NCBI GenBank assembly: GCA_964036045.1
Contig: OZ038380.1
Location: 126,400,899-126,464,898, forward strand
Reading direction: 5' to 3'
Length of the DNA stretch: 64,000 nucleotides
Origin: Eutreptiella sp. 'Long Island Sound 2002'
Taxonomy: Eukaryota; Euglenozoa; Euglenophyceae; Eutreptiales; Eutreptiaceae
This document shows, in pieces, positions 3,418 to 53,613 of the stretch (within the stretch, counting starts at the first letter, position 1; every line of letters begins with the position of its first letter). Under the pieces are notes generated by a model that saw only the letters and a program-made list of their open reading frames with translations, made no database searches and was not told the origin of the DNA. The translations under genes were made by a program, and so were the position numbers.

Positions 3418-3469
3418 ATGTCGTTTGAGGTCGACAATCTATCTGTCACCTTGGAATGGAAGAATGGAA
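2192..3469 (-). repeat. 1,278-bp tandem duplication, proximal copy
   Basis: Partner of 914-2191. The junction near 2191/2192 joins the normal C-terminal coding end (CTATTCTGGGG in sense) to the segment that normally precedes the domain (TTCCATTCTTCC). Confidence 0.95.
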
Positions 3470-4032: not shown

Positions 4033-4047
4033 GCTTTGGAGCCTCGA

Positions 4048-4389
4048 CTAAATGCGCTGAGAGTCGCTGTCAAAGCGATGTAGGCACGGGTTCGACCAGT
4101 GTGGCCACGCAGATTGGGCCAGCAGGGCGTTGGGCCCATTTAGAGACTTAAACAGTTCATTGATGACTGTGACCCAAAGGACATGATCTGGGGCAGCTTT
4201 TCCTAGAATGGAAACTATGCAGGCACGTGGAGTATTGGGAGCCAACCCAAAGACCAGTCCGTACACCCTGCATATGGACCCCGTCATCGAACTGATTTGC
4301 ACGTCCGTTGGCACATTCACACAGCAGCGAAACACAAGCCTGTTGACTACAAGTCCTTCTATCACAGTGTGTGCCACACCCACCGACAC
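4048..4389 (-). pseudogene. A1 reverse transcriptase thumb/connection segment
   Basis: About 113 codons homologous to the A2 segment at about 13,930-14,270. It lies between the YVDD palm and RNase H and is split from both by small lesions. It contains the conserved SVGVAHTVIEGLVVNRLVFRC-type stretch. It has no function of its own. Confidence 0.65.
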
Positions 4390-11617: not shown

Positions 11618-11648
<31 letters not shown>

Positions 11649-11807
11649 CATACATACATACATACATACATACATACATACATACATACATACATACATA
11701 CATACATACATACATACATACATACATACATACATACATACATACATACATACATACATACATACATACATACATACATACATACATACATACATACATA
11801 CATACAT
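11617..11807. repeat. (CATA)n microsatellite tract 2
   Basis: About 47 perfect CATA units between the 5' end of A1 (left) and the 3' end of A2 (right). It shows that both A copies are bounded by the same tetranucleotide. Confidence 0.97.
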
Positions 11808-21496: not shown

Positions 21497-22197
21497 TACA
21501 TACATACATGCATGCATGCATACATACATACATACATACATACATACATACATACATACATACATACATACATGCATGCATGCATACATACATACATACA
21601 TACATACATACATACATACATACATACATACATACATACATACATACATACATACATACATACATACATACATACATGCATGCATGCATGCATACATACA
21701 TACATACATACATACATACATACATACATACATACATACATACATACATACATACATACATACATACATACATACATACATACATACATACATACATACA
21801 TACATACATACATACATACATACATACATACATACATACATACATACATACATACATACATACATACATACATACATACATACATACATACATACATACA
21901 TACATACATACATACATACATACATACATACATACATGCATGCATGCATGCATGCATACATACATACATACATACATACATACATACATACATACATACA
22001 TACATACATACATACATACATACATACATGCATGCATGCATACATACATACATACATACATACATACATACATACATACATGCATGCATACATACATACA
22101 TACATACATACATACATACATACATACATACATACATACATACATACATACATACATACATACATACATACATACATACATACATACATACATACAT
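21497..22197. repeat. (CATA)n microsatellite tract 3 with CATG islands
   Basis: About 700 bp, the longest tract. It contains islands of (CATG)n at about 21,507-21,519, 21,572-21,584, 21,676-21,692, 21,936-21,956, 22,028-22,040 and 22,079-22,088. It lies between the 5' end of minus-strand A2 and the 5' end of plus-strand B1, so both elements start from it, facing apart. Confidence 0.97.
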
Positions 22198-24252
22198 AGC
22201 GCGGAGTCCCCCCCGGCGAATCCGAGGTTCTTCCTCGAAGGGGCCCACGGGCCCAGGGGACGCCACCGGGTATTTTCGGCCAAGCCGGACGGAGCTCCCA
22301 CCGGCGACCCCCCCCCGCATGGGTGGGTGCACGCGACAGCCGCCACCCCCCCCCCCCCCCTCAGCCCCCCCAAAAAGGGACTCCGGCGCGGAGGGTTGGG
22401 GATATAGTCCCATGCCGCGCGGCCATGAATGGACATGGCCCTACACAGGGCGATACACGCCCGCCCCCCCCCCCCTCGCACAAGAGGGGCCCCCGTCGTC
22501 CCCCGGGCAGGGAGCAACCCCCCCCCCTCCCCAGGGAACGGCCGCCCTCAGGAGCCCTCGCCCAGCCCCCGAGGGCCTCTCGGGGTTCGCCCCCGAGCCA
22601 GCCCGGCCCTCCCACGCCCCCCCCTCACCAGCCGCAGCCCTAGGGCCCGCCCGGTCTCCCCCGCGCCGGCCCGCGATCTCCCGGGACCCGGGCCCCAGAG
22701 CCCCGGTGCCCAGCCCCGCCCGCCCCCCCGGTATCCCTCCGGCGGGGCCCGTCCCGGTCCGGTTCGGCCGCGAGGGGACGGCGAGGCGCTCCCCCCGCCT
22801 CCACCAGGATTCGCCCCCGTGGATGACGCTCGGCGGGATTCGTCCCCGCCGAGCGGGGTGCGGGCCCCATCGCTGACCGTGGCCCCCCATCACCACGAGC
22901 GCCCCAGGCTCCCCGGCCGACTTTGGCCAGCCCCGGCCGCTCCTCCGCCCCGGTCAGCCACACGGTGACGCTCAGCGGCTGAGCTCACCGCACCCCCTCC
23001 CCCGCGCACGCTCGCCAACCCCCACTCACAGCCCCCCTCGCCCCCGCCTTCCCCCCCCCCCCTGCCCCCTCCTCCCTCTCCCCCTGCCCTGTCCCTCCCT
23101 TCGCTCCTCACAGGTAACCCGTGGCATCGGAAGCAGGCCACCGTGGTCGCAGCCAGCATGGCTCCAGATCATCGTCGGGCCCCCCCACTACCGGCAGGGG
23201 TCCCAGGCCTTGCTCCTCCCTCACGCCCCCTGCACCGGCCCAGTGCGGCCTCATATGGCATGAGTCATCCTCCTCCCCTCCGTGCAACGCCTCCCCCCCT
23301 GCCCCCACCCCAGCCCCTGCCTCGTTCACAGGAGACGTTCAGGGGGGACCACAGGTCCCTGGGAGGGGAACTCAGTACCATGGGCGGGGACCCACGCCTC
23401 TCACTTCCTGCCCCCGCGCGCCGGGGCCGCACCAGCTGTGCTGTGCCGGCCCCACGGGAAGCGAACAGCACGCCAGGGCCGCACCAGCTGTGCTGTGCAG
23501 GCCCCACAGGAACCCCCGCACGCCAGGGCCGCACCAGCTGTGCTGTGCAGGCCCCACAGGAACCCCCGCACGCCAGGGCCGCACCAGCTGTGCTGTGCAG
23601 GCCCCACAGGAACCCCCGCACGCCAGGGCCGCACCAGCTGTGCTGTGCAGGCCCCACAGGAACCCCCGCACGCCAGGGCCGCACCAGCTGTGCTGTGCAG
23701 GCCCCACAGGAACCCCCGCACGCCAGGGCCGCACCAGCTGTGCTGTGCAGGCCCCACAGGAAACCCCGCACGCCAGGGCCGCACCAGCTGTGCTGTGCAG
23801 GCCCCACAGGAAACGGGCAGCGCCCCTCCACGCCCGCGCTCGTGCGGTTCAGGGGCACGCAGGCAGATTGCCCCCTCCCCTGTCGTGGGGGAGCGGCGGC
23901 CGGAAGCAAGGGGAATCGGGGCCCCGCAGGTCCCCGAACAGGTGGTCCCTCCAGCCAGCCCCCCCACCCCGCCTCCGTCTCGCACAGGTCGGGTCACCCT
24001 CCCCCTCGCAGCGGGGGAGGGCTCCAGGGTAACACACACAGGTGGCTCCTCCCTCCTCCTTGCGCGCGCACCCCCCCCCCCCCCGACATGGCGGCCCCCA
24101 CCCCCCCCCCCCCCCCCTCGGTCGTCGTCGGCACACGCCCGGCCAGCGTGACGCCGGCCGACTGCTCCCTTGCGCCCTGCCCAGGGAGAGCGTGTCTGGC
24201 AATTTCTCCCGCCGGCACGTGCTGGGTGCCCTCACAACAACAACAACAACAA
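22198..24252 (+). mobile_element. LINE family B, short non-autonomous copy (B1)
   Basis: A 2.05-kb element. It shares its 5' end with B2 (first about 900 bp, with GGAGTCCCC near the start) and its 3' end with B0 and B2, but has no protein domain. The middle holds an eight-copy 50-bp minisatellite. It is probably an internally deleted derivative moved by proteins of full B elements. The sense strand is very C-rich. Proline-rich open frames in all phases follow from composition and are not called. Confidence 0.78.
23421..23820 (+). repeat. 50-bp minisatellite, 8 copies, in B1
   Basis: Eight head-to-tail units of exactly 50 bp starting at 23,421, 23,471, 23,521 and so on, six of them almost identical. 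Each holds GCACCAGCTGTGCTGTGCAG. Because 50 is not a multiple of 3, successive units are read in rotating frames, which argues against a coding role. Confidence 0.95.
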
Positions 24253-24470
24253 CATACATACATACATACATACATACATACATACATACATACATACATA
24301 CATACATACATACATACATACATACATACATACAAACATACATACATACATACATACATACATACATACATACATACATACATACATACATACATACATA
24401 CATGCATGCATACATACATACATACATACATACATACATACATACATACATACATACATACATACATACA

Positions 24471-24500
<30 letters not shown>
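24253..24500. repeat. (CATA)n microsatellite tract 4
   Basis: Follows the (CAA)n run at the 3' end of B1 and precedes the 5' end of B2. About 60 units with one CAAA variant and one CATG pair. Confidence 0.97.
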
Positions 24501-25783: not shown

Positions 25784-26321
25784 CGGGCCGCCAGGAGAGC
25801 GGAGGGGCGCCGCACTGCCCCGAGCGCCCCCACTTCACCACCCGCCACGGCTCCCCCCGGTCCACCGCCATTGACCACATCTTCGCCACCGGACCTATCG
25901 CCTCCCACACTCACCACGTCCTCCCCTGCCACACCTGCCACGCCATGGTGCTGGCGCAGGTCACCCTACACCACCGCTCCTGCGACGCCCACTCGTGGCG
26001 CCTGTTCCGATGGCGCCTGGCAACTGTCGAGGACATGGACTCCCTCTCAGCCGCCCTTGACCTGGCCGCCCGCGGCTACGTCTCTCGCGCTGCCGTCCTC
26101 TCCTCCACCTCCATCACCTCCGCCACTCGCACAGTCCTCCGGCTGCCCTCCCCTCCCCTGGAACCGTTCCACGGCATCCTCCCCCACCCGGGGGCCACCC
26201 TCACGACCCGTGAGGAACGGCTCGCCGAGGTCACGGCCCAGTCCCGATCCCAGACGGCCAACCGGCACGTCTCCGTGGACCACGCCTTCTTCGCCGCCCG
26301 CTGCACCCCGGACCCCTGGCT
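25784..26321 (+). pseudogene. B2 endonuclease C-terminus and linker, 5' part of the broken ORF
   Basis: A coding part in one frame, open to 26,499 only by running into D. The RSTAIDHIFATG box is typical of the end of a LINE AP endonuclease. A linker follows with LATVEDMDSLSAAL and ARCTPDPW. It ends at the insertion point of D. If D and one TGGCT are skipped, the frame continues into WLPLLDPPTD at 30,831. No Glu or GDxN box is present upstream, so the endonuclease is truncated. Confidence 0.75.
26317..26321. other. Target-site duplication of D, left copy (TGGCT)
   Basis: TGGCT directly before the left inverted repeat matches TGGCT at 30,825-30,829 directly after the right one. Removing one copy plus D restores a continuous LINE reading frame, which supports the exact limits. 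Confidence 0.85.
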
Positions 26322-26346
26322 CTTAGGCGTCACAAGTTGCCCACCC
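26322..26346 (+). repeat. D left terminal inverted repeat
   Basis: 25 bp, matching the complement of 30,800-30,824 except at the 15th base (G here, T in the complement of the right end). The outermost base C/G is included because it lets both ends mirror each other and leaves equal 5-bp flanks. Confidence 0.9.
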
Positions 26347-26526
26347 TCTAGGACCCCGTATACGCGCGATTTGACAATATTCTACATTTCTACTTTGAGT
26401 ATGTTATTTGACGTATGTGACCAAAGTTGTTGGCAGAGCTGTATGACACCCGTTGAAATACGTGTTGATGTGTTAGCCTTGTGTATCCCCGTCTTCTAGT
26501 GTGTTGTATTTGACGTTTTTCTGAAG

Positions 26527-26827
26527 CTGGCCGAAATTTCGGCCAGGTTTTGGGCAACATTGCACACAACTATGTGTATATGCAGTTTTTGACCCTTCTG
26601 GCCGAAATTTCGGCCAGCTTTTTGGTTTCTTGGTGAATAGGCATGATTATTTTCATTTTTCTTAGGGCTGGCCGAAATTTCGGCCAGCTTTTTGGTCTGT
26701 TCACTATTCAAGCACTTATATTCTGGTTTTTGGGTGGGCTGGCCGAAATTTCGGCCAGCTTTTCCTATTTTTGAACATGTAAGCAATTATTTCCCCTTTG
26801 AACACACCTGGCCGAAATTTCGGCCAG
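26527..26827. promoter_or_regulatory. Five phased palindromes upstream of D gene 1
   Basis: Five perfect copies of CTGGCCGAAATTTCGGCCAG start at 26,527, 26,598, 26,668, 26,739 and 26,808, steps of 71, 70, 71 and 69 bp. Most are followed by CTTTTTGG or similar. The text between copies is not conserved, so it is the site and its spacing that are kept. They lie in the 5' end of the element just before gene 1, as expected for a dimeric transposase or repressor array, or for a replication-type iteron set. Confidence 0.85.
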
Positions 26828-26898
26828 CTTGCAATGGTCGTTGTTCATGAGTATTACACCATACACTCCTACATAACTGTTTTCTTGTCTCAGCATGA

Positions 26899-28659
26899 AT
26901 GTCTTCTGCTATTACTGTCACTGTTGTACATGCTGCAGTTATCGGTGCTTTTGCTACTACAGCCAAAGGGCTGTTGCGAAATGCATTATGTGGTGGGACT
27001 CTGCAAAAGCTTTTGCAATTCTGCCTCTTGTTGCGGAAGAATCGCAGGAGCCGGCACTCCCTGACACAGTTGAAGGCCGCCGCCACTGAGAAGAAGCCCC
27101 CACGATGGTACATGACATTTTTGTCACAGTTCCATGCCCTATACTGCCTGCTGCGCCGTATGGCCCTCCCATACTCTAACTGTGGGTCTGGTTACAACTG
27201 GGGTATTATTTCCTGCCGCCAACGCCGTAAGGTAGGAGTCCTTGGTCAGTGTAACACTAAGCAGGAGTCCATTCACCATCGTGCTGGACTAGCAGCACAC
27301 AACTTGTGGAACACCATGCACCGTAGGCAAGTTTGTATATGGTTTGATAACCTGAGGCGTTACAGGTCGGGAGCTGATCCCCATTCACCCGACTTAACCC
27401 TAAACTGTACAGCTGTTGCTGTTTTGCACACTACTGCCCTACCTGCATACCGGGGTCTGCCGGAGCTGGCCGAAATTGAGGCCAGGGTACCAAAGGTTGC
27501 TGATGACATCTTTCGCTCACATAGATCATTGTTTGATCGTATTGATGTTGCCAACCAAGGTATTCAGAGAGTTTGGGTTCGTGCTCCTTTGGATACTGCC
27601 AGAAAAGATGTTCGTTCCCTCAACTGGAGACCCTTTTTCCTGTCTGAGCTCCGCTCCGGCACACACAAAGAGCTTTTGCAACTGGTGGTTGATTTGTCAT
27701 GTGTGGAACACCGCACCAGACACTGTGTTCCGCTGCTTGTGGACATGAAAATACACTTTGCCCTACTTAAGCTGTGTTATGGTGGTGCTTATGTTCCCTG
27801 GAATGTACCACAATTACTGTTGGGTTTTCCTTTGGTGTACGGAGTATGGCATAACTATAAGTATTGCATTGAATTGATCTACAGGGCGTTCCTGCCGTTC
27901 ATTAAGTTTTTGGAGCAGGGGAACAGCCTTCAGGTTGGGTCTATCCTCCCTCGCAAGGTCAAGGTCATCCATATGGAGAAGACGTTGCTTGGACTCATGC
28001 TAGCAACATCGTCCAATAGAGGCAGACTAGATGAGCGCGTCACTTCCCTGCTCAATAGCCAGCGGGACTTGACGCCCATTCAGCGCAAGGGTTTGCGTAT
28101 GTTATTAGCCCTTAAGGCTTTGCTGTACACATACTTTCCAGCTGCCCACAGCATTGGGACTTTGGTTCATGAGTGCAACTGGGAGGGACGGGGGGCAGGT
28201 TCCGGTATTGTAGCTAAGCAGGCACTTGAGATGTCCCTACTGCTCATGCTGAACATCCTAAAGCCCGAGGAACAGTTAACCACGGAGTATGTGAAAACCA
28301 CCGCTGTTGCTCTTTTGTTTTGGAGTCAGTGGCATTCCGCCTCCCTAGGGTGTATCCACTCTGAGGAGCTGGGTGAGGCACTTCTGAGTCGGTTCTCAGC
28401 CCACTGTCGCCGCAACACTGCCTGTACTAGCGTCCAACAGTCGTCTGATTTATTTCTGACACTTCCCCCTGTCCAACCCGGAGAGAAAGTTTTGCGTGGT
28501 GTGCTGACTGAGAGATCCGTGGCAATGTTCTCTGCCAATCTTAAACAATTCATCTTGACAGCCCGTACACAGAGCCTGCCCATTTGTGTTCCCGTTCCGG
28601 TCTATAAAGTTGAGGTGAGAAGACTGGATGCAGTTGAGGATTTGACGTTCCCCGAATAA
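26899..28659 (+). CDS. D gene 1, 586-aa protein, candidate transposase
   Basis: The largest gene of D, fully open. ATG at 26,899 is the first in frame after the palindrome array; an upstream start is blocked. I recognise no family with certainty. Cys/His and Arg-rich stretches lie in the first 150 residues. Conserved-looking blocks include CIWFDNLRRYRSG (about residue 150), PLLVDMKIHFALLKLCYG (about 280) and LVHECNWEGRG (about 425). These offer D, D and E residues in a plausible DDE order, but that is inference from spacing. A degenerate palindrome lies inside the gene at 27,466-27,485, where it encodes LAEIEAR. Confidence 0.7.
   Translation: MSSAITVTVVHAAVIGAFATTAKGLLRNALCGGTLQKLLQFCLLLRKNRRSRHSLTQLKAAATEKKPPRWYMTFLSQFHALYCLLRRMALPYSNCGSGYNWGIISCRQRRKVGVLGQCNTKQESIHHRAGLAAHNLWNTMHRRQVCIWFDNLRRYRSGADPHSPDLTLNCTAVAVLHTTALPAYRGLPELAEIEARVPKVADDIFRSHRSLFDRIDVANQGIQRVWVRAPLDTARKDVRSLNWRPFFLSELRSGTHKELLQLVVDLSCVEHRTRHCVPLLVDMKIHFALLKLCYGGAYVPWNVPQLLLGFPLVYGVWHNYKYCIELIYRAFLPFIKFLEQGNSLQVGSILPRKVKVIHMEKTLLGLMLATSSNRGRLDERVTSLLNSQRDLTPIQRKGLRMLLALKALLYTYFPAAHSIGTLVHECNWEGRGAGSGIVAKQALEMSLLLMLNILKPEEQLTTEYVKTTAVALLFWSQWHSASLGCIHSEELGEALLSRFSAHCRRNTACTSVQQSSDLFLTLPPVQPGEKVLRGVLTERSVAMFSANLKQFILTARTQSLPICVPVPVYKVEVRRLDAVEDLTFPE
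27466..27485. promoter_or_regulatory. Degenerate D palindrome inside gene 1
   Basis: CTGGCCGAAATTGAGGCCAG, two mismatches from the perfect site and read as coding. Either a relic or a tolerated internal binding site. Confidence 0.5.
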
Positions 28660-28669
28660 ATCGACCGAC

Positions 28670-28689
28670 CTGGCCGAAATTTCGGCCAG
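28670..28689. promoter_or_regulatory. D palindrome between genes 1 and 2
   Basis: A perfect copy 10 bp after the gene 1 stop and about 80 bp before the gene 2 ATG. Its position between genes fits a transcription boundary or control site. Confidence 0.8.
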
Positions 28690-28770
28690 CTTGTGTGTCG
28701 TTCAATTAATGCACAATAGGAGCCCACCCTGTGCTACCACCTGTCTGCAGCTACACTTGGTACTATCGAG

Positions 28771-29481
28771 ATGGCCAAAAGGCAGTGCGCTATTGCATCA
28801 CACCTGAAGGTAGCCTATGGCAGCTGGACCTGGACTGAAGAAAACCCCTGGCCCCCGTGGTCAGCAGTAATTAAGGCCCCTCTTTGGAAGGAACCCAAAT
28901 ATGAGGGGTTGCGGGGATCGTTGCAGAAGCCTGTTGCTAAGCCTGTTTGTGAAAAATCTGATACTGGTCTGGTCAGTATCCAGTGTGCTAGGGAGTCCCT
29001 CGTTGAGTCAAGCACAGGCAAACTCATTGCAGAGTCAGGCCGTGTGGAACTGATGGCAATGCGTTGTGGAGTCCCTGTTCCCAGTATCATTAGTTCACTG
29101 CCCTCTGCTGCTTGTGTCATTGAGGTGCCCCGCCTCTATACAGCTGGTTTGCATAACCTGGTTGTGCAGCTGCTTTTGTCCGGTGTGCCTGTGTTCATTG
29201 CGGGTGAGTCTGCTGATGTGAAAGCCACTGTTGCTGCTTTGAAGGCCACTGTGGCTGAGGATATGTATCAGTGTGATGTTGCACTTTACAATTTGTCAAG
29301 CAAGACCCCGCTGTACACTTCTACGTCCCATCTGGTTTCCATTTGTTCTGCCACTGCCTTTGATACCAGGCTTCCCCGTTACGTGGCTTTTACTGAAGGA
29401 CCCATGTCGTCTGTGATGCCTGTTGAAATATTCTCATTTCTTTTGAGCCTGGTTCCGGTCCCAGAACGGGCAGGCAACTAG
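28771..29481 (+). CDS. D gene 2, 236-aa unknown protein
   Basis: Open from ATG (MAKRQCAIASHLKVAYG) to TAG. No domain is recognised. The N-terminus is Trp/Pro-rich (GSWTWTEENPWPPW), the middle mixed hydrophobic and Ala/Val-rich with no clear membrane segment or zinc motif. It lies 111 bp after gene 1 and 36 bp before gene 3 on the same strand, so genes 2 and 3 could share a transcript. A cargo or accessory transposition protein is possible; nothing proves it. Confidence 0.65.
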   Translation: MAKRQCAIASHLKVAYGSWTWTEENPWPPWSAVIKAPLWKEPKYEGLRGSLQKPVAKPVCEKSDTGLVSIQCARESLVESSTGKLIAESGRVELMAMRCGVPVPSIISSLPSAACVIEVPRLYTAGLHNLVVQLLLSGVPVFIAGESADVKATVAALKATVAEDMYQCDVALYNLSSKTPLYTSTSHLVSICSATAFDTRLPRYVAFTEGPMSSVMPVEIFSFLLSLVPVPERAGN

Positions 29482-29517
29482 TTTTTGCTGGGGACTCTGT
29501 CTGTGTATTTTGCAAGC

Positions 29518-30039
29518 ATGATGTCTACCAGGTTTTCCAAGGACTGTAATGTTGTGTGTGCCCTTTTGGGTGAGGAGACTATTGTGCCCGATGACTTTGT
29601 TCAGCTCATCAGAGCAGGTATCACCAACGCCGACCCGTGCCCCCCCAAGTCATGGGAGGATGTGTACCACGACTTGGGGGCAGGTTTTCATGTGGATTGT
29701 TCTGGGGTTAGGTATGTAGATGAGGATCCTGAGGAGCAAGATGGGGAGGCAGAGTCGCAACCAGAGATACAGACTCCAAAGAAGAAACCCAAAACTGCCC
29801 CTGCCCCCTCACCCAGTGGCACGCAGTGCGCTCAGGCCACCCCAGCTTCCTCCTCAGGCACTGTTGCCCCTACTGGCAAAGGTATGAATACTTTTGTGAA
29901 TCATTTTTCACCATCCCAGGGTGGAAACACACAGTCACAGAACTCTGCCACTGCCAAGTCTGGTGCTGCAGCCCCTGCCAAGCAGCCTGCTAACACACGT
30001 GCTAAGAAGCCCCGTGCATCTGGTCTGCGCAAGCGCTAA
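29518..30039 (+). CDS. D gene 3, 173-aa protein with basic low-complexity tail
   Basis: Starts at one of two adjacent ATGs (29,518 or 29,521); the frame opens upstream but with no earlier ATG. The first 75 residues look globular (CALLGEETIVPDDFVQL, KSWEDVYHDLGAGF). An acidic patch DEDPEEQDGE then gives way to a Ser/Pro/Ala/Thr-rich tail with PKKKPK and a C-terminus KKPRASGLRKR, likely nuclear localisation or DNA-binding signals. Such a tail suits a DNA-handling protein. Family unknown. Confidence 0.65.
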   Translation: MMSTRFSKDCNVVCALLGEETIVPDDFVQLIRAGITNADPCPPKSWEDVYHDLGAGFHVDCSGVRYVDEDPEEQDGEAESQPEIQTPKKKPKTAPAPSPSGTQCAQATPASSSGTVAPTGKGMNTFVNHFSPSQGGNTQSQNSATAKSGAAAPAKQPANTRAKKPRASGLRKR

Positions 30040-30078
30040 TGCCAGTCCTGCTGCTTATATTGCCTGTCAGCATGAAGT

Positions 30079-30401
30079 CTGGCCGAAATTTCGGCCAGCA
30101 TGCAGTCCTCAGCCTCTTCAGCCTTTTATTATTGTGTTTCCCCATAGGCACTGCAAAAGTCTGCTTTGATTCGTCAGGTGGCAAGTATTTGCTTGTAATT
30201 GAGTATATTATGTTGCACACCCTGTTCAAATGTCACTGCTCCTGTGTTCCTTGCTCATGTGTACTGTCTTAGGTACCCATTTCAGTGATCATATTCGGAG
30301 TTTCGATGGACCTGGCCGAAATTTCGGCCAGCTTAGGCCTGTCTGTCAAATAGGACCATGTGTTTGGACTTTTTCGAAGAGCTGGCCGAAATTTCTACCA
30401 G
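30079..30401. promoter_or_regulatory. D right-end palindromes
   Basis: Two perfect copies at 30,079-30,098 and 30,312-30,331, and a degenerate one at 30,382-30,401 (four mismatches in the right arm). The last two are 70 bp apart, the same step as in the left array. Confidence 0.8.
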
Positions 30402-30799
30402 GTTGGTTAAAATAGGAAATACAAGTACATGCTTTGGGATAGTTTTTTGTGTGCTTCAATGAAAGGTATGTTTGGGGTTCCCTCATCTGTGGTGTATAGG
30501 GGGGTTCTGTGATCAACCTCGAACAAAGGGGAGAGAAAAATAGGCAGCCCCCTCCCCCCCACACACTGGAATGCAGTGGTCTAAATGTAAAACAACACTA
30601 TATTTTGGTGATTGAATGTCTTTATTTTGAAAATCTGTGTGTTTCCAGAAATGCAAACAATGGCATATATTTGAAATACACACCTTGTTTTTGCATGTTG
30701 CCACCAGGGGGGCTTGGGTACCCAAAAAATAACACCCCTTTTCACATACTTTTCCCCTCATTACAACATGGACTTCCGTGGGCCATAGCGCCAGGTGGG
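30402..30799 (+). other. D right non-coding end
   Basis: AT-richer DNA between the last palindrome and the right inverted repeat. No gene, repeat or named site is seen. Confidence 0.5.
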
Positions 30800-30824
30800 G
30801 GGTGGGCAAATTGTGACGCCTAAG
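30800..30824 (-). repeat. D right terminal inverted repeat
   Basis: Mirror of 26,322-26,346. It is followed by TGGCT (30,825-30,829), the second target copy. Confidence 0.9.
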
Positions 30825-33688
30825 TGGCTCCCCCTCCTGGACCCGCCCACCGATCTCACTCTCCCCCTACTCCGCGACGCCCTCCGCGCGAACGCCCGAC
30901 CAGAATCCCCCGCCTCCTCCGGGCGTACGCCCTCGCCCGCCAGCCCCCCCCCCTCATCAGCACCGCCTCCCTCGCCCACCGCCGCACGGGCAAGCGCTCC
31001 CTCGCCGTGTCCACTGACAACGTGGCACGCGCGGCGCTCTTCCGCAGCGGCGGAGACGTCCACCTCGGGTTGCTACTCCTCCTCCTCCAGCTCGAATCTG
31101 GCACCCCGGGCGTCTCCAACGAGACCGTCCGCTACGGCCTCTACAAGGGGGAACCCACCAAGCCACTCCCCCGGCACCTCACACGCTCCTTTCGCCCCGT
31201 CGACGTGGAGTCGGGCGTCTCCGGCGCAGCCTCCGGCATCACCACGACCCGCCTAGCCGCCGATCTCGAGCTCACCCCCACCTACACCCCCGCCTCCTTC
31301 GCCTACCGCCCAAGCCACTCCGCCCTCGGCCTCGCCCTGGTAGCCCGCGCCGCCGCCTACACAGCCCTCTCCACCCACGGCACCTGCGCCATCTGCGACT
31401 GGGACGAGTCTGACGCGTACCTCAGGGTGCTGCGCCAAGACAACTCCCGCCTTCGCTCCCGCCTCCGCGCCACGTGGGACTTTGGCCCCTGGGCAGACGG
31501 CTTCTACAGCCGCCTGGTCATCCGCGTGGCCACCCGGGAAGGGTTTCGCGCACCCCTTCAGCACCGAGGAGGGGGGCAACCAGGGCGACGGATTCGCCCA
31601 ACTCCACACCAGGCCCCCAGCCTGGTCATCACCAGGGCCATGCGCCCCAACACTTCCATCACCCTCCCCCTCACCGTCCCCGGCCACTCAGCGTCCCTCC
31701 CCGCCACCCACCTCTCGTACAGCGACGACCGCCGCTTCATCACCCCCTCCCTCACGGACGTGGCTGCCATGGCCACTGACGGCCGCGAGTGCTCTCGCCG
31801 CGCCGGCCGCATCATACACCCCGACAAGCAGGAGTTCTCCCTCATCGACTGCCGCCCAGGCCGGCCCACCCTCGTCACAGCCGACGTCCCGCAGCACACC
31901 GGCACCACCACCACCGCCCCCCTGGAAGTCGTCGGCATTCCCATCCTCCCCGAGCTCCCCCTCCTCCGCGTCATCAACAAGTCCCGCGCGTCCCTCGACC
32001 GGGCGCGCAAGGCCAGCCGCAACCGCGAGGCCTGCCCCATACTCCAGCTCCGCTCCCTGCACGCCTTCGGCCTCTCTCCCCTCGACTACGTCACCTCGGG
32101 CGTCCTCGTTCCCCCCCCCTCTTTCCGCCCCCATCAGACCACCATCAACAATGCTTACCGCCAAGCCTTCCGTCTGCCCCCGTGGGCACACTCAGCCTTC
32201 CTCCACCTCCCCCTCCAGCAGGGCGGTCCCGGCGCCCCCCTCCTAGCGCACCGGGCCCCCCTCAACCTCCTCCGCACCTACCTCCGCGCCTCTTGGGGCC
32301 CCAACACCCTCGCAATAGCCGCCACGGCGTCCCTCATCTCCCCACGCCGCCCCACCCCCTGGCTCACCGAAGGTCCCGCCCTGGCACAGGCGCTCGCCCC
32401 CCTCGACATCATCGTCCACCTCCTCCCCTCCCCCCACGTACGCCCCACCCCGCAGCACCACACCGGCTCACTGGCCCCCCTCCGCTCCCTCCCCTATGTC
32501 GTGGTCGCATGCGACGGCAGCCAAGAGGGCACCCGCCTCGGCGCCGGCTTCCTCCTCTGGCACCCCCACCACGGCACTCTCTACCGCGGCTGGCTTGGCC
32601 TCCACGCCCTCGCCGGCCACTCCACCGACGCAGAGTGGATCGCCAAAATAGCCGCCATGTTTGCCCTCCGCGGCTGGTCCGGCGAAGCCCTCTTCGCCTC
32701 GGACTCCACCACCTCCCAACTCTGCGATCTCACCCGCGGCCCGCCCCCCTCCTCCGCCCTCTCCATCCCGTACCGGGCGGCCCTCCTCTCCGCCTCCTTC
32801 CGCATGCACGAGGCCTGGCTCCCCGCGCAACACGACTCCGGCTCCGCCAGCCACCTCGCCACCCTCAACGCCGAGGCCGACAGCCTAGCCCGCCGCGGGC
32901 TCCAGGCCGCCTCCCCGTGGACCCTCCCCTGGTCCGCACTCTTCCACGGCCGCATCGTGGCGCTCCGTGAGGGTGCCATCTTCCTTAGCCCCGCGCGCGC
33001 CGCAGAGGCAGCGTATGCGGCCACCACCGCCCGCACCCACGCGCTGCACCTCCGGCCCCTGCCCCCAGGCTGGTCCTCCCACCTACTCCGCCTCGCGTAT
33101 GAACGCGCCGAGATCCCGGCACTGGCCCTCCACCGCATCATGCACCTCCGGCTACTGCACTCCCAGGACCACCCCCCCGGCTACGGAGGGGTGACGTGCC
33201 CCTTCTGTCACCGCCCCTACCCGGACTCCGCCGCCCACCTCCAATACCACTGCACCCCCCACTACGCCCTGCAGTTACTCCTCGCGTGGCGCCTGTTCAC
33301 GCACCCGCCCGTCCTGTCAGCCACAGCCAGCCACTCCCCCCGCCTTGTCACACCTTTAGAGCTCCGCACGGCCACCACCGCAGTGTACCTCTCCGAGCAC
33401 CTCCCAGCTGCCCCGCGACCCGGCCCCCCGACGCAGTTGGGGTTCAGTCTGCTCGGCATGTGGCACTCCTCCTCCCCCCACGGCGCCCCCCCACTGCTGG
33501 ACAGCGCCGGCCGGGAGGGACTCCTCCGCGAGCGTCTCTCCACCCTCAGCACGACGCACACGTCGCTAGCGTCACTCCTCCGCCGTGCCCCCTTCCCACG
33601 TCACCGCCCCGCCCCCCCCCCCTCCCGCCGCACGTCCCCACGCCGCCCTGCACCCAGCCCCACACACTGCGCCACAGCATCGCCCTAG
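30824..33688 (+). pseudogene. B2 reverse transcriptase, RNase H and CCHC finger
   Basis: 954 open codons. The first 25 or so belong to the wrong frame; the true frame enters from the -1 phase near 30,890-30,910. Reverse transcriptase: FAYRPSHSALGLALVARA, then motif A ICDWDESDAYLRV (Asp near 192) and motif C LSYSDDRRFI (residues 299-302). RNase H: VACDGSQEGTRLGAGF (Asp near 564), STDAEWIAKIAA, LFASDSTTSQL and AWLPAQHDSGS...LNAEADSLA. The finger is C-P-F-C, nine residues, H, four residues, C, at 792-810. The DWDE motif A and SDDR box resemble family C. The start codon is not genuine, since translation would come from upstream of D. Confidence 0.88.
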
Positions 33689-34710: not shown

Positions 34711-35378
34711 CACGGCACAGGGACAGGCACCAGGGGACAGCACCTGAACCAAACACAACACGCTAGCAATTGTATACCCATGATCATGCTCTTGTGCTCC
34801 CGCCCTTGTGCCCTCCCTCCCCCATGACCGACGCGCGCGCGCGCCCGCACTACCGGGGACGAGGCGGCCACACCACAGCACGAGCAAAGGTGACTAGGCA
34901 CCGGCAGACAGCAACTCCCGGGCCTCCCCTCGCCCCCGTAGAAGGCTAGAAGCACGGGCCAGCGCCCCCGGCCACGCCACGGCCGCACACGAGGAACATC
35001 CACCTCGGCGGGACGTTCGGGCAAGGCGCGGAGTGTCCGTGGACCCGGGCGTGCCTTCCCCACCCCACGGTCACCGCCCCACCCTCCACCCCCACCACAG
35101 CCGCTTCGCACAGGACGAGTAACTCTCCCCCCGCGAGACGGGGGAGGGCTCCAGGGTAACCTCCACAGGTGGCCCCACCCTCCTCCACGCGCGCCCCCCC
35201 CCCTCCCCCTCCACTCCACGGCGCCCCCCCCCCCCTCGGTCGTTGTCGGCACACGCCCGGCCAGCGTGACGCCGGCCGACTGCTCCCTTGCGCCCTGCCC
35301 AGAGAGAGCGTGTCTGGCAATTTCTCCCGCCGGCACGTGCTGGGTGCCACAACAACAACAACAACAACAACAACAATA
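34009..35378 (+). other. B2 3' untranslated region
   Basis: Tandem repeats to about 34,710, then a unique stretch, then from about 35,100 the block shared with B0 and B1, ending in a (CAA)n run that meets the CATA tract. No gene is supported. Confidence 0.65.
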
Positions 35379-35790
35379 CATACATACATACATACATACA
35401 TACATACATACGTACATACATACATACATACATACATACATACATACATACATACATACATACATACGTACATACATACATACATACATCCCTACATACG
35501 TACATACATACATACATACATACATACATACATACATACATACATACATACATACATACATACATACATACATACATACATACATACATACATACATACA
35601 TACATACATACATACATACATACATACATACATACATACATACATACATACATACATACATACATACATACATACATACATACATACATACATACATACA
35701 TACATACATACATACATACATACATACATACATACATACATACATACATACATACATACATACATACATACATACATACATACATACATA
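35379..35790. repeat. (CATA)n microsatellite tract 5
   Basis: About 100 units with a few CGTA and one CATC-C variant. It ends the A/B nest. The sequence to the right has no A or B end. Confidence 0.97.
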
Positions 35791-45543: not shown

Positions 45544-45584
45544 ATTGAAATCCGCAGAAAGAAGGCCAAAGGTACAATCTACAT

Positions 45585-46634
45585 GATATCGACGGCTCCA
45601 AGGACACCATCGATGGGATTGAAGTGATCGGTTGGGCTGCAGTGATCGGCGATGACGATGGACTTCTGGCAACGGCGCATCAGGCCATCCAAAGCACCGC
45701 CGGGTCTTCGTGGGTAGCGAAACGGTGCAGCAAGGGGGGCTGCATGGACCTGCTCGAGCACATCAGCTCAGAGGACTGTGCCATTGGAGCGGTGGTGGCG
45801 GACAACGTGTCGGCGTCGTTCGGCGAGGATGGAGGACGCCCTTCCCCCTGCGCATGGTTCGACAGGATTCGGCTGCGGTATGCAGAGTTCGTGTCCAGCC
45901 ACGACGTCCCCGAGTACTTCATCCCGGCGCAGCATGACAGCCATGACAGTTACTGGCTGGCAAGGTGGCAAAGCATGGCTGACCAGCTGGCGAAAGCGGC
46001 GCTGCGGACAGCTCGGAGGTTGACGGCACCCTTCCGAAGGCACCTGGAGGGCATGGCGCCGCTGTTCAAGTCGCAGACACTGGTGGTGCATGTGACCAAG
46101 GGCCTCGACCAATGTGCAGTGGACCGGTGCATGCCCATCGTCCCGAGGATGGCGCACCTGGCAGGAAGGACGTGGCGAGAGGCGGTGGCGGCAGGCAACA
46201 TTGCCAACAAAGGCATGGCAGCAGCCTTGTGGCTCAGGTCGGCAGCATGGTGCCACGTGTCCAACAAGGAGGAATTCCACTGCCCAATCTGCAGGAGGAG
46301 CTGCGATGGATGGGGACGGCATCTGGCACAATCGTGTGTCCATGCTGCAATGGCATGCATGATGGGGCTTGCAGCGGTCGCCCAGAGCCTCCAGGACCAA
46401 GGAAAGGAGGTACAGTGGACGTCGGTGACCACCCTGCGAGTCGGGGAAGTGGAACTCTGGCGGCTGCAGCACGAAGACGACTTTCGCCAGACCCAGCACA
46501 TCCCCGAGGACACAGTGATGGTGTCGTCGTCAGGCCTGCTCGCCAATGCGAGTCAGAAAATGGAGGTCAAGAGGAAGCTGACGGAGGCATACCTCAATGC
46601 GATGGCCGACTTCATCACCCTCCCACTAGGATGA
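45585..46634 (+). pseudogene. Unit 1 RNase H and CCHC finger
   Basis: Open from 45,624. The conserved start MISDGSKD at about 45,583 is lost by a 1-nt deletion (ATCGAC where other units have ATCCGAC). ADNVSASFGEDG carries the third acid and AQHDSHDSYW...MADQLAKA the late His/Asp. The finger is C-P-I-C, nine residues, H, four residues, C. It ends LPLG and TGA. Confidence 0.82.
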
Positions 46635-46772
46635 AGACTGCAGGAGTTCCTATGGATGCAACCGGCAGGATGGACCGCAACCCGGAGATGGGGCACACCG
46701 GCCATCCGTTCCGCAATCCAGCATGCTGCGGGAGGAAGATCCTAGACGGTATGGGGCCCGGAAGCCCACCTC

Positions 46773-47450
46773 ATGGCCCATCCACTGGACGAATCGGCGC
46801 CGATCAGACGGACAGGCATGATGGCAGCCAGAGCCCCACCACCGAAGGATCAATGGGACGCGCAATCCGTTATCATCATGGACACAACACCAGCCACGTC
46901 GGAATATGACATCTGGGTGATCCGCCCGGGAGACATACATGGACTATACATCGGGTACAAGCCACATTGCATGTCGGCAGAGCTGATGGAAGTCATCAAG
47001 GAACTCCGGCTATCCGAATGGGCTAATCGAGAGGTTCATCCACTGCATCCACTGAACTGGGAAGATGACAGCGACGATGGGGATTACGAACCAAAAAGCG
47101 CGGAAGAACAGTCGGACGATGAAGATGAAGACGATGACTTCGAAAGCATGGAAGAGGATGTGGAATCGTCGGACGGGGACGACCGAGGAGACTTTTACAC
47201 ACACCCCGCACCCCACCCACACTGCAACCCCACACACGGGCATGCACACGCGCACACACGTGAACGTTCATCTCAGCGGCCCTACCCCGATCGCCTCTTG
47301 GGGATGCGAGGCCAAAATGAGGAACCTCCTCACCCCGCATACGACAACCCGATCGTGAACAGCACTCAGGTCATCGCTCAGCATCTCAGCCACCACTCGC
47401 AATCAACGAGCGGCGGCGACCACCCCAAGGCCGGCCTCAAGGGGACGTGA
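46773..47450 (+). CDS. Unit 1 acidic-tailed frame, long form (225 aa)
   Basis: Starts MAHPLDESAPIRRTG. A globular-looking part with IWVIRPGDIHGLYIGYK is followed by a tract of about 45 residues rich in Asp/Glu (SDDEDEDDDFESMEED) and, in this unit, a His-rich tail. CGA here replaces the TGA (short form of 137 aa) seen in most units. No family is recognised. Antisense frames across it are shadows. Confidence 0.5.
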   Translation: MAHPLDESAPIRRTGMMAARAPPPKDQWDAQSVIIMDTTPATSEYDIWVIRPGDIHGLYIGYKPHCMSAELMEVIKELRLSEWANREVHPLHPLNWEDDSDDGDYEPKSAEEQSDDEDEDDDFESMEEDVESSDGDDRGDFYTHPAPHPHCNPTHGHAHAHTRERSSQRPYPDRLLGMRGQNEEPPHPAYDNPIVNSTQVIAQHLSHHSQSTSGGDHPKAGLKGT

Positions 47451-47672
47451 GGCACGTACCGGCACCCCCGCACCATCCCCAGCAAGAGCAACTGCCGATG
47501 TGCGGAAGCGCCAGGCCCCGCACCAGACAAGAGCATTGTGCACGGCGCTAAGGCCTCAGCTCAGCACCACGAAGCCGCAACATTATCCCCACACGCATGC
47601 ACATGATCGCAAGCGCAGGCACTCGCACACGCCAAGACATCAAAGGCCGGTGCACAGAGCACCGCTGGAAGA

Positions 47673-49885
47673 GGTCCGGGAATGGCTTCGATATCACAAG
47701 CTCAACATTGTGGTCGGTGACCGGGAACATGGTGTCGTACAATGGTCTGAACCATAGATTGAAATCCGCAGAAAGAAGGCCAAAGGTACAATCTACATGA
47801 TATCCGACGGCTCCAAGGACACCATCGATGGGATTGAAGTGATCGGTTGGGCTGCAGTGATCGGCGATGACGATGGACTTCTGGCAACGGCGCATCAGGC
47901 CATCCAAAGCACCGCCGGGTCTTCGTGGGTAGCGAAACGGTGCAGCAAGGGGGGCTGCATGGACCTGCTCGAGCACATCAGCTCGGAGGACTGTGCCATT
48001 GGAGCGGTGGTGGCGGACAACGTGTCGGCGTCGTTCGGCGAGGATGGAGGACGCCCTTCCCCCTGCGCATGGTTCGACAGGATTCGGCTGCGGTATGCAG
48101 AGTTCGTGTCCAGCCACGACGTCCCCGAGTACTTCATCCCGGCGCAGCATGACAGCCATGACAGTTAGTGGCTGGCAAGGTGGCAAAGCATGGCTGACCA
48201 GCTGGCGAAAGCGGCGCTGCGGACGGCTCGGAGGATGACGGCACCCTTCCGACGGCACCTGGAGGGCATGGCGATGCTGTTCAAGTCGCAGACACTGGTG
48301 GTGCATGTGACCAAGGGCCTCGACCAATGTGCAGTGGACCGGTGCATGCCCATCGTCCCGAGGATGGCGCACTTGGCAGGAAGACGTGGCGAGAGGCGGT
48401 GGTGGCAGGCAACATTGCCAACAAAGGCATGGCAGCAGCCTTGTGGCTCAGGTCGGCAGCATGGTGCCACGTGTCCAACAAGGAGGAATTCCACTGTCCA
48501 ATCTGCAGGAGGAGCTGCGATGGATGGGGACGGCATCTGGCACAATCGTGTGTCCATGCTGCAATGGCATGCATGATGGGGTTGCAGCGGTCGCCCAGAG
48601 CCTCCAGGACCAAGGAAAGGAGGTAGAGTGGACGTCGGTGACCACCCTGCGAGTCGGGGAAGCGGAACTCCGGCGGCTGCAGCACGAAGACGACTTTCGC
48701 AAGACCCAGCACATCCCTGAGGACACAGTGATGGTGTCGTCGTCAGGCCTGCTCGCCAATGCGAGTCAGAAAATGGAGGTCAAGAGGAAGCTGACGGAGG
48801 CATACCTCAATGCGATGGCCGACTTCATCACCCTCCCACCAGGATGAAGACTGCAGGAGTTCCTATGGATGCAACCGGCAGGATGGACCGCAACCCGGAG
48901 ATGGGGCACACTGGCCATCCGTTCCGCAATCCAGCATGCTGCGGGAGGAAGATCCTAGAGGGTATGGGGCTCGGAAGCCCACCTCATGGCCCATCCACTG
49001 GACGAATCGGCGCCGATCAGACGGACAGGCATGATGGCAGCCAGAGCCCCACCACCGAAGGATCAATGGGACGCGCAATCCGTTATCATCATGGACACAA
49101 CACCAGCCACGTCGGAATATGACATCTGGGTGATCCGCACGGGAGACATACATGGACTATACATTGGGTACAAGCCACATTGCATGTCGGCAGAGCTGAT
49201 GGAAGTCATCAAGGAACTCGGGCTATCCGAATGGGCTGATCGAGAGGTTCATCCACTGCATCCACTGAACTGGGAAGATGACAGCGACGATGGGGATTAC
49301 GAACCAAAAAGCGCGGAAGAAGAGTCGGACGATGAAGATGAAGACGATGACTTCGAAAGCATGGAAGAGGATGTGGAATCGTCGGACGAGGACGACTGAG
49401 GAGACTTTTACACACACCCCGCACCCCACCCACACTGCAACCCCACACACGGGCATGCACACGCGCACACGCATGAACGTTCATCTCAGCGGCCCTACCC
49501 CGATCGCCTCTTGGGGATGCGAGGCCAAAATGAGGAACCGCCTGACCCCGCATACGACACCTCGATCGTGAACAGCACTAAGGTCATCGCTCAGCATCTC
49601 AGCCACAACTCGCAATCAACGAGCGGCGGCGACCACCCCAAGGCCGGCCTCAAGGGGACGTGAGGCACGTACCGGCACCCCCGCACCATCCCCAGCAAGA
49701 GCAACTGCCGATGTGCGGAACCGCCAAGCCCCGCACCAGACAAGAACATCGTGCACAGCGCTAAGGCCTCACCTCAGCACCACAAAGCCGCAACATTATC
49801 CCCACACACATGCACATGATCGCAAGCGCAGGCACTCGCACACGCCAAGACATCAAAGGCCGGTGCACACAGCACCGCTGGAAGA
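47673..49885 (+). repeat. Array unit 2
   Basis: Its RNase H frame (47,797-48,168) stops at a TAG in DSHDS*W, and one base is missing near 48,383 and another near 48,582, so the finger is out of frame. Private change: GTCGGTGACC near 47,713. Confidence 0.93.
48986..49399 (+). CDS. Unit 2 acidic-tailed frame, short form (137 aa)
   Basis: Same 137-codon frame as in units 3, 5, 6, 7 and 8, ending SSDEDD and TGA. Confidence 0.5.
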   Translation: MAHPLDESAPIRRTGMMAARAPPPKDQWDAQSVIIMDTTPATSEYDIWVIRTGDIHGLYIGYKPHCMSAELMEVIKELGLSEWADREVHPLHPLNWEDDSDDGDYEPKSAEEESDDEDEDDDFESMEEDVESSDEDD

Positions 49886-50009
49886 GGTCCGGGAATGGCT
49901 TCGATATCACAAGCTCAACATTGTGGTCAGTGACCGGGAACATGGTGTCGTACAATGGTCTGAACCATAGATTGAAATCCGCAGAAAGAAGGCCAAAGGT
50001 ACAATCTAC

Positions 50010-51338
50010 ATGATATCCGACGGCTCCAAGGACACCATCGATGGGATTGAAGTGATCGGTTGGGCTGCAGTGATCGGCGATGACGATGGACTTCTGGCAA
50101 CGGCGCATCAGGCCATCCAAAGCACCGCCGGGTCTTCGTGGGCAGCGAAATGGTGCGGCAAGGGGGGCTGCATGGACCTGCTCGAGCACATCAGCTCGGA
50201 GGACTGTGCCATTGGAGCGGTGGTGGCGGACAACGTGTCGGCGTCGTTCGGCGAGGATGGAGTACGCCCTTCCCCCTGCGCATGGTTCGACAGGATTCGG
50301 CTGCGGTATGCAGAGTTCTTGTCCAGCCACGACGTCCCCGAGTACTTCATCCCGGCGCACCATGACAGCCATGACAGTTACTGGCTGGCAAGGTGGCAAA
50401 GCATGGCTGACCAGCTGGCGAAAGCGGCGCTGCGGACGGCTCGGAGGATGACGGCACCCTTCCGACGGCACGTGGAGGGCATGGCGATGCTGTTCAAGTC
50501 GCAGACACTGGTGGTGCATGTGACCAAGGGCCTCGACCAATGTGCAGTGGACCGGTGCATGCCCATCGTCCCAAGGATGGCGCACCTGGCAGGAAGGACG
50601 TGGCGAGAGGCGGTGGTGGCAGGCAACATTGCCAACAAAGGCATGGCAGCAGCCTTGTGGCTCAGGTCGGCAGCATGGTGCCACGTGTCCAACAAGGAGG
50701 AATTCCACTGCCCAATCTGCAGGAGGAGCTGCGATGGATGGGGACGGCATCTGGCACAATCGTGTGTCCATGCTGCAATGGCATGCATGATGGGGCTTGC
50801 AGCGGTCGCCCAGAGCCTCGAGGACCAAGGAAAGGAGGTAGAGTGGACGTCGGTGACCACCCTGCGAGTCGGGGAACCGGAACTCTGGCGGCTGCAGCAC
50901 GAAGACGACTTTCGCAAGACCCAGCACATCCCCGAGGACACAGTGATGGTGTCGTCGTCGGGCCTGCTCGCCAATGCGAGTCAGAAAAATGGAGGTCAAG
51001 AGGAAGCTGACGGAGGCATACCTCAATGCGATGGCCGACTTCATCACCCTCCCACCAGGATGAAGACTGCAGGAGTTCCTATGGATGCAACCGGCAGGAT
51101 GGACCGCAACCCGGAGATGGGGCACACTGGCCATCCGTTCCGCAATCCAGCATGCTGCGGGAGGAAGATCCTAGAGGGTATGGGGCCCCGAAGCCCACCT
51201 CATGGCCCATCCACTGGACGAATCGGCGCCGATCAGACGGACAGGCATGATGGCAGCCAGAGCCCCACCACCGAAGGATCAATGGGACGCGCAATCCGTT
51301 ATCATCATGGACACAACACCAGCCACGTCGGAATATGA
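50010..51338 (+). pseudogene. Unit 3 RNase H and CCHC frame, extended by a frameshift
   Basis: The first 327 or so residues are normal (MISDGSKD start, VVADNVSAS, finger with CPICRRSCDGWGRH). The last 115 (from NGGQEEADGG) are translated from the frame that in other units is not coding. Confidence 0.7.
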
Positions 51339-51615
51339 CATCTGGGTGTTCCGCCCGGGAGACATAAATGGACTATACATTGGGTACAAGCCACATTGCA
51401 TGTCGGCAGAGGTGATCGAAGTCATCAAGGAACTCCGGCTATCCGAATGGGCTGATCGAGAGGTTCATCCACTGCATCCACTGAACTGGGAAGATGACAG
51501 CGACGATGGGGATTACGAACCAAAAAGCGCGGAAGAAGAGTCGGACGATGAAGATGAAGACGATGACTTCGAAAGCATGGAAGAGGATGTGGAATCGTCG
51601 GACGAGGACGACTGA
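51202..51615 (+). CDS. Unit 3 acidic-tailed frame (137 aa)
   Basis: Intact short form. Differs from others by VFRPGDIN and EVIEVIK. Confidence 0.5.
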   Translation: MAHPLDESAPIRRTGMMAARAPPPKDQWDAQSVIIMDTTPATSEYDIWVFRPGDINGLYIGYKPHCMSAEVIEVIKELRLSEWADREVHPLHPLNWEDDSDDGDYEPKSAEEESDDEDEDDDFESMEEDVESSDEDD

Positions 51616-52225
51616 GGAGACTTTTACACACACCCCGCACCCCACCCACACTGCAACCCCACACACGGGCATGCACACGCGCACACACGTGAACGTTCAT
51701 CTCAGCGGCCCTACCCCGATCGCCTCTTGGGGATGCGAGGCCAAAATGAGGAACCGCCTGACCCCGCATACGACACCTCGATCGTGAACAGCACTAAGGT
51801 CATCGCTCAGCATCTCAGCCACAACTCGCAATCGACGAGCGGCGGCGACCACCCCAAGGCCGGCCTCAAGGGGACGTGAGGCACGTACCGGCACCCCCGC
51901 ACCATCCCCAGCAAGAGCAACTGCCGATGTGCGGAAGCGCCAGGCCGCACACCAGACAAGAACATCGTGCACAGCGCTAAGGCCTCACCTCAGCACCACG
52001 AAGCCGCAATATTATCCCCACACGCATGCACATGAACGCAAGCGCAGGCACTCGCACACGCCAAGACATCAAAAGCCGGTGCACAAAGCACCGCAGGAAG
52101 AGGTCCGGGAATGGCTTCGATATCACAAGCTCAACATTGTGGTCAGTGACCGGGAACATGGTGTCGTACAATGGTCTAAACCATAGATTGAAATCCGCAG
52201 AAAGAAGGCCAAAGGTACAATCTAC

Positions 52226-53071
52226 ATGATATCCGACGGCTCCAAGGACACCATCGATGGGATTGAAGTGATCGGTTGGGCTGCAGTGATCGGCGATGAC
52301 GATGGACTTCTGGCAACGGCGCATCAGGCCATCCAAAGCACCGCCGGGTCTTCGTGGGCAGCGAAATGGTGCGGCAAGGGGGGCTGCATGGACCTGCTCG
52401 AGCACATCAGCTCGGAGGACTGTGCCATTGGAGCGGTGGTGGCGGACAACGTGTCGGCGTCGTTTGGCGAGGATGGAGGACGCCCTTCCCCCTGCGCATG
52501 GTTCGACAAGATTCGGCTGCGGTATGCAGAGTTCGTGTCCAGCCACGACGTCCCCGAGTACTTCATCCCGGCGCAGCATGACAGCCATGACAGTTACTGG
52601 CTGGCAAGGTGGCAAAGCATGGCTGACCAGCCGGCGAAAGCGGCGCTGCGGACGGCTCGGAGGATGACGGCACCCTTCCGACGGCACCTGGAGGGCATGG
52701 CGCTGCTGTTCAAGTCGCAGACAGTGGTGGTGCATGTGACCAAGGGCCTCGACCAATGTGCAGTGGACCGGTGCATGCCCATCGTCCCAAGGATGGCGCA
52801 CCTGGCAGGAAGGACGTGGCGAGAGGCGGTGGTGGCAGGCAACATTGCCAACAAAGGCATGGCAGCAGCCTTGTGGCTCAGGTCGGCAGCATGGTGCCAC
52901 GTGTCCAACAAGGAGGAATTCCACTGCCCAATGTGCAGGAGCAGCTGTGATGGATGGGGACGGCATCTGGCACAATCGTGTGTCCATGCTGCAATGGCAT
53001 GCATGATGGGGTTGCAGCGGTCGCCCAGAGCCTCCAGGACCAAGGAAAGGAGGTACAGTGGACGTCGGTGA
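52226..53071 (+). pseudogene. Unit 4 RNase H and CCHC frame, shifted end
   Basis: 281 codons, MISDGSKD start and complete finger; frame lost after MACMMG. Confidence 0.7.
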
Positions 53072-53613
53072 CCACCCTGCGAGTCGGGGAAGTGGAACTC
53101 TGGCGGCTGCAGCACGAAGACGACTTCCGCAAGACCCAGCACATCCCCGAGGACACAGTGATGGTGTCGTCGTCGGGCCTGCTCGCCAATGCGAGTCAGA
53201 AAATGGAGGTCAAGAGGAAGCTGACGGAGGCATACCTCAATGCGATGGCCGACTTCATCACCCTCCCACCAGGATGAAGACTGCAGGAGTTCCTATGGAT
53301 GCAACCGGCAGGATGGACCGCAACCCGGAGATGGGGCACACTGGCCATCCGTTCCGCAATCCAGCATGCTGCGGGAGGAAGATCCTAGAGGGTATGGGGC
53401 CCGGAAGCCCACCTCATGGCCCATCCACTGGACGAATCGGCGCCGATCAGACGGACAGGCATGATGGCAGCCAGAGCCCCACCACCGAAGGATCAATGGG
53501 ACGCGCAATCCGTTATCATCATGGACACAACACCAGCCACGTCGGAATATGACATCTGGTTGATCCGCCCTTGAGACATACATGGACTATACATTGGGTA
53601 CAAGCCACATTGC

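What the first reader, a model, noticed from the sequence alone, without database searches (positions are those of the whole stretch)
26322..30824. An unassigned 4.5-kb DNA transposon with three genes
Seen directly: 25-bp inverted ends (24/25), a 5-bp TGGCT duplication, three uninterrupted plus-strand frames and a base composition unlike the surrounding LINE. Known superfamilies are usually told apart by end sequence and duplication length; CTTAGGC ends with 5 bp do not match those I know (hAT and P 8 bp, Mutator 9, CACTA 2-3, Transib 5 bp but CAC ends, Maverick 6). The proteins are unfamiliar.
Basis: partly seen in the sequence, partly recalled or inferred. Interest (0 to 1): 0.88.

Follow-up and report, generated by a model that had tools for sequence, protein, structure and literature searches.

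The report
Unclassified green-alga DNA transposon, defective copy
This is a broken copy, with its middle deleted, of a roughly 6.5-kb DNA transposon whose characteristic ends occur 917 times in what is probably a green alga's genome; its main protein is predicted to be a cut-and-paste transposase folded like those of P elements and hAT elements, and it matched no described family in our searches, so it likely represents a new group of jumping genes.

The parts
26317..26321 (.). left target-site duplication TGGCT
26322..26346 (+). left terminal inverted repeat CTTAGGCGTCACAAGTTGCCCACCC
   Evidence: 24/25 with right end; 917 ends in the genome, control 0
26527..26827 (.). five perfect 20-bp palindromes CTGGCCGAAATTTCGGCCAG (starts 26527, 26598, 26668, 26739, 26808; spacing 71, 70, 71, 69)
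26899..28659 (+). gene 1, predicted DDE transposase, cut short at 586 aa by the internal deletion (673-738 aa in the 12 of 17 long copies where it is open); all acidic candidates present; residue 424, Arg in 18 of 18 aligned relatives, is His here; an imperfect palindrome lies at 27466-27485
28653..28654 (.). junction of the ~2-kb internal deletion (element position 2333 joined to 4362 of L014, two shared bases)
28670..28689 (.). palindrome that lies in predicted intron 3 of gene 2 in long copies
28751..30039 (+). predicted exon 4 (last exon) of gene 2, broken by a stop codon at 29479-29481 into the 236- and 184-aa frames; one open 422-aa frame in 15 of 17 long copies; exons 1-3 lie in the deleted part
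30079..30401 (.). three palindromes in the 3' non-coding region (30079, 30312 perfect; 30382 with 2 mismatches)
30800..30824 (-). right terminal inverted repeat
30825..30829 (.). right target-site duplication TGGCT

Best explanation
The window holds a defective, internally deleted copy of a roughly 6.5-kb DNA transposon whose gene 1 is predicted to encode a DDE transposase with the P-element/hAT type of fold, which likely moves the element by cutting it out and pasting it into 5-bp staggered target cuts. Shown: inverted ends, 5-bp duplications, empty sites, hundreds of ends, 98.8% mean identity among 17 long copies, and a second, diverged family with the same ends and layout. Predicted: an RNase H core carrying D150 (strand 1), D282 (strand 4) and E489 (helix after a helical insertion domain), with a G(2)H motif just after strand 5. 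Inferred: gene 1 protein binds the CTTAGGC ends, cuts and joins; the defective window copy could then be moved only in trans. Also inferred: the product of the spliced gene 2, or gene 1 itself, binds the ~70-bp-spaced palindromes to build the transposition or regulatory complex. The lineage fits no named superfamily tested and is best treated as a new superfamily-level group.
Confidence: 0.82

Rival explanations
1. It is a very diverged branch of the P superfamily that has lost its DNA-binding THAP finger and changed from 8-bp to 5-bp duplications.
Against: Hermes (8.8) is tied within 1 Z unit; no P-element or THAP model among Pfam hits at E <= 10; 5-bp duplication in 20 of 21 copies; the C/D of the [C/D](2)H motif is G in 17 of 19 and A in 2 of 19.
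Confidence: 0.12
2. It is a diverged hAT lineage, comparable to hAT5 families with 5-bp duplications.
Against: No hAT model among Pfam hits at E <= 10; ends CTTAGGC differ from hAT ends as I recall them (from memory).
Confidence: 0.1
3. Gene 1 is not the transposase; the enzyme is encoded by gene 2 or supplied by another element.
For: Gene 2 is also present in family B and has no assigned function; sequence searches name neither protein.
Against: The gene 1 family has the predicted RNase H fold and invariant acids. The 2.6-kb family B copy L043 has both ends and gene 1 but no match to gene 2, though it too may have been moved in trans.
Confidence: 0.06
4. Gene 2 is a ParB-plus-methyltransferase accessory protein like those reported in algal transposons, binding the palindromes as a parS-like array and marking the element.
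For: By eye, GQVR...RVQxRYD and GGQH in exons 1-2 and a methyltransferase-like stretch in exon 4; [quoted passage not shown] the palindromes are symmetric and regularly spaced.
Against: ParB_N (PF02195) gave 10 hits genome-wide, where hundreds would be expected if the element's exons were recognisable; no credible Pfam, NCBIfam, PHROG or PDB match.
Confidence: 0.3

Closest known systems
P-element transposase (PDB 6p5a, 6pe2)
   Different: No sequence similarity found, no THAP or P-element Pfam model, 5-bp instead of 8-bp duplication, G(2)H instead of [C/D](2)H
hAT transposases (Hermes, PDB 4d1q, 6dwz); hAT5
   Different: No hAT Pfam model; other end sequence (recalled)
Transib / RAG1 (PDB 6pqy, 6dbr)
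   Different: CAC ends absent (ends are CTTAGGC); weaker fold match
ISCth4 (PDB 6xg8; IS256 family, recalled)
   Different: Bacterial copy-out/paste-in element; no sequence match
ParB-methyltransferase accessory proteins of algal transposons (Sola1-1 of Ectocarpus)
   Same: A large extra protein encoded by an algal DNA transposon
   Different: Domains not detectable in gene 2 by the profile searches run; Sola1-1 is 21.5 kb and of another superfamily

Membership tests
DDE cut-and-paste DNA transposon (general) | Terminal inverted repeats and fixed-length target duplication across copies | tested here: met
   20 of 21 copies with perfect 5-bp duplication
DDE cut-and-paste DNA transposon (general) | Empty sites elsewhere | tested here: met
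   40 of 40 scored LINE copies align across the join; 3 of 3 read are exact at the junction
DDE cut-and-paste DNA transposon (general) | RNase H fold with three invariant acids in the right elements | tested here: met
   Predicted model of relative P0041 and conservation; prediction only, geometry and catalysis not shown
DDE cut-and-paste DNA transposon (general) | Excision of the donor copy (cut-and-paste rather than copying) | not testable with these tools
   No excision footprints examined; no experiment
   5 bp
P superfamily | Sequence match to THAP / P-element models | tested here: not met
   Pfam at E <= 10, none
P superfamily | Transposase fold | tested here: inconclusive
hAT superfamily (incl. 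hAT5) | hAT transposase / dimerisation model in sequence | tested here: not met
   Pfam at E <= 10, none
hAT superfamily (incl. hAT5) | 8-bp duplication, 5 bp in hAT5 | tested here: inconclusive
   5 bp fits only hAT5 (for the definition)
Transib | 5-bp duplication | tested here: met
   CTTAGGC ends in both families
KDZ (Kyakuja, Dileera, Zisupton) | 8-bp duplication reported for Zisupton | tested here: not met
   5 bp; definition from PMC12730594 passages
ParB-methyltransferase accessory protein | ParB_N domain detectable | tested here: not met
   the intron between exons 1 and 2 weakens the genome search
The 24 Repbase superfamilies | Similarity to a Repbase transposase | not testable with these tools
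   Repbase and HHpred not available

The most novel reading that the evidence does not exclude
This is the founder of a new eukaryotic transposon superfamily that carries its own partition-like or operator-like system: thirteen symmetric 20-bp sites, about 70 bp apart within clusters, set in the element's non-coding stretches, introns included, and bound by its own second protein, so that the whole element is packed into one nucleoprotein complex that marks, regulates or pairs its ends. Between two diverged families the sites near the left end keep their positions, and in the best-preserved sites both arms have changed together, as expected if protein and site evolve together.
Probability: 0.28. 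Interest if true: 0.8.

Novelty: new variant of a known kind. Interest (0 to 1): 0.62.

Why it matters
New superfamilies of DNA transposons are rare: Repbase, as accessed in 2019, counted 24 in eukaryotes (PMC12730594, passages). This lineage is abundant, has nearly identical copies (98.8% among 17) and has relatives on unnamed short contigs, so it may be widespread. It would add a branch to the P/hAT/RAG type of DDE enzymes, and its palindrome array with a dedicated second gene gives a directly testable case of a transposon that organises its own chromatin or end pairing.

Tried and rejected
Three-gene reading: rejected. DUF6589 kinship, which I suspected from memory: PF20231 gave no hit in the genome, but its control rang nowhere, so the test says nothing. 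First AlphaFold run on the family's own protein: pLDDT 43, not used for folds. Viral origin: no relatives of gene 1 found in viral contigs, no significant viral fold match. ParB/methyltransferase identity of gene 2: looked likely by eye, no profile supports it. Phage tblastn with gene 2: 15 records, the 10 listed at E 0.8-3, chance. Paper searches for this lineage listed none that describes it, judged by titles and the beginnings of abstracts; three papers were opened for passages only; the library holds open-licence papers only. In one search a family that is not listed is not excluded. A genome-wide count of the palindrome could not be obtained.

Full report
What is there. The interval 26322-30824 is an insertion in a GC-rich LINE. 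Its ends match at 24 of 25 positions and it is flanked by TGGCT on both sides. Joining the two flanks with one TGGCT gives a sequence found at 97-98% identity in all 40 scored places of the genome (358 candidates; 39 cover all 203 bases, one covers 3-203), which are LINE copies without the insertion. Three of these read in full show one TGGCT at the exact junction; the one-base length difference lies about 85 bases downstream and is a change in the window's LINE. This shows insertion, duplication and target directly.

Family structure. The window lies in an unnamed 2.28-Gb genome. All 75 matches to the 586-aa protein that the search scored (8,141 candidates) are 96-100% identical (a lower bound). 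I fetched 20 copies. All 20 have both ends; 19 met the stricter end match used for measurement and the twentieth, L017, was read separately. With the window copy, 20 of 21 have identical 5-bp duplications and one (L023) differs at one base. The 24-bp end, with one position left free, occurs 917 times, the reversed control 0 times. Of the 93 end positions listed for contig C1, 34 pairs form: 15 of 6.4-6.6 kb, 15 shorter (2.2-6.4 kb) and 4 longer; 25 ends are unpaired. So complete elements are about 6.5 kb and internal deletions are common. The 17 long copies measured (6.3-6.5 kb; L017 left out) share 98.8% mean identity. Target sites look symmetric about the duplication (C at -2 in 14 of 20, G at the mirror position in 11 of 20).

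The window copy is defective. Against L014 it joins element position 2333 to 4362, losing about 2 kb with two bases of microhomology. The 586-aa frame is gene 1 cut short. In 12 of 17 long copies gene 1 is open for 673-738 aa; in the other 5 it is broken. The 236- and 184-aa frames are two pieces of one 422-aa frame, open in 15 of 17 long copies. Residue 424, arginine in 18 of 18 aligned relatives, is histidine in the window copy.

Gene 2. In the long copies the frames after gene 1 join through GT-AG introns of 87, 87 and 128 bp into one frame of 771 aa. With the same exon limits this frame is open over its whole length (770-771 aa) in 8 of 17 long copies; the other 9 have stops or frame shifts, some early. 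The donor and acceptor dinucleotides are kept in 16 or 17 of 17 copies at each site. A second acceptor for intron 2 would also keep the frame. Splicing is predicted, not observed. In the second family parts of exons 1-2 are recognisable at 43-54% identity, in copies that carry stops. By eye the N-terminal part recalls ParB and the last exon a DNA methyltransferase, and such fusion proteins are reported in algal transposons (PMC12477816, passages seen). But Pfam, NCBIfam, PHROG and PDB searches found nothing credible, and a genome search with ParB_N gave only 10 hits, nine on high-numbered contigs that I did not read and one on C1 far from any listed end. I therefore leave gene 2 unassigned.

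Palindromes. CTGGCCGAAATTTCGGCCAG occurs in the window only inside the element: 10 sites with up to 3 mismatches in the 16-base core, 0.22 expected, 0 of 100 shuffles reach 10. In 15 of 17 long copies there are 14 sites: 13 outside the predicted exons (five after the left end, three between the genes, one each in introns 2 and 3, three before the right end; 0-2 mismatches each) and one imperfect site inside gene 1; L016 and L018 have 11 and 10. Spacing within the clusters is 68-71 bp. In the second family, L043 has four sites at element positions 207, 276, 345 and 456, against 206, 277, 347, 418 and 487 in the first; L041 has its first three at the same places and two more after gene 1. Of these ten family B sites two have a perfect 14-base core GGCGAAATTTCGCC, that is, both arms changed together; the other eight have 1-3 mismatches, so symmetry is only partly kept in these old copies. 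Position outlasts sequence, which argues for a bound protein, probably a dimer; which protein is not known.

Second family. P0015 (46% identical) lies in the same genome; its other scored matches are 64-90% identical to it and most carry stops. L043 carries CTTAGGCCACGCTAACT ends and an AAATG duplication on both sides, holds gene 1 and has no match to gene 2. The 17-bp end occurs 294 times, control 0, with three pairs 6.3-6.4 kb apart among the places listed. Shared hallmarks are therefore CTTAGGC termini, a 5-bp duplication (one family B copy read), gene 1, gene 2 (in L041 and L044) and palindromes.

Host. Contig C2205 carries rbcL beside rpl2; the rubisco fragment's best chains include some that I recognise (from memory) as Chlamydomonas, and a copy of the same plastid stretch sits on chromosome-size contig C7. 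I infer a green alga; the species is not known.

Placement. Works like: a cut-and-paste DDE transposon of the P/hAT fold type (inferred mechanism). Membership: at least one tested defining feature each of P, Transib and KDZ is not met, and hAT is met only in part. Repbase could not be searched, so "new superfamily" stays a proposal.

Noticed in passing
window 45562-64000: Tandem array with a 2,213-2,216-bp unit, 9 copies (mostly 96-100% identical in the stretches compared), still running near the window's end; by eye it carries a LINE-like RNase H/zinc-knuckle reading frame.
   Followed up: partly
window 393-649, 11619-11807, 21497-22198, 24252-24500, 35376-35790: Long near-perfect (TACA)n/(ATAC)n arrays up to 702 bp; possibly LINE tails or a preferred LINE target.
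   Followed up: no
window 30915-30916: The window's LINE lacks one base present in three other copies of the same LINE.
   Followed up: partly
L043 933-3574; L041: Second, older family of the same transposon lineage in the same genome, with 294 exact ends.
   Followed up: yes
L038 (G000:C7) and L039 (G000:C2205): A chromosome-size contig holds a near-identical copy of the plastid rbcL-rpl2 region: nuclear plastid DNA.
   Followed up: partly
L037 (G000:C394): A contig with an rpl3-rpl4-rpl2-like cluster (named by eye, rpl2 by profile) unlike the green plastid: probably another plastid or a bacterium in the assembly.
   Followed up: no
G000:C324, C953, C1228, C1235, C1262, C1386, C1696, C1801, C2055 and C1:5002265-5002468: Ten ParB_N hits, nine on high-numbered contigs (perhaps bacterial, not read) and one on chromosome-size C1.
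   Followed up: no
P0093-P0101: Relatives of gene 1 on short contigs of unnamed origin, 43-52% identical to P0041 (P0101 29%), suggesting a wide spread of the lineage.
   Followed up: partly
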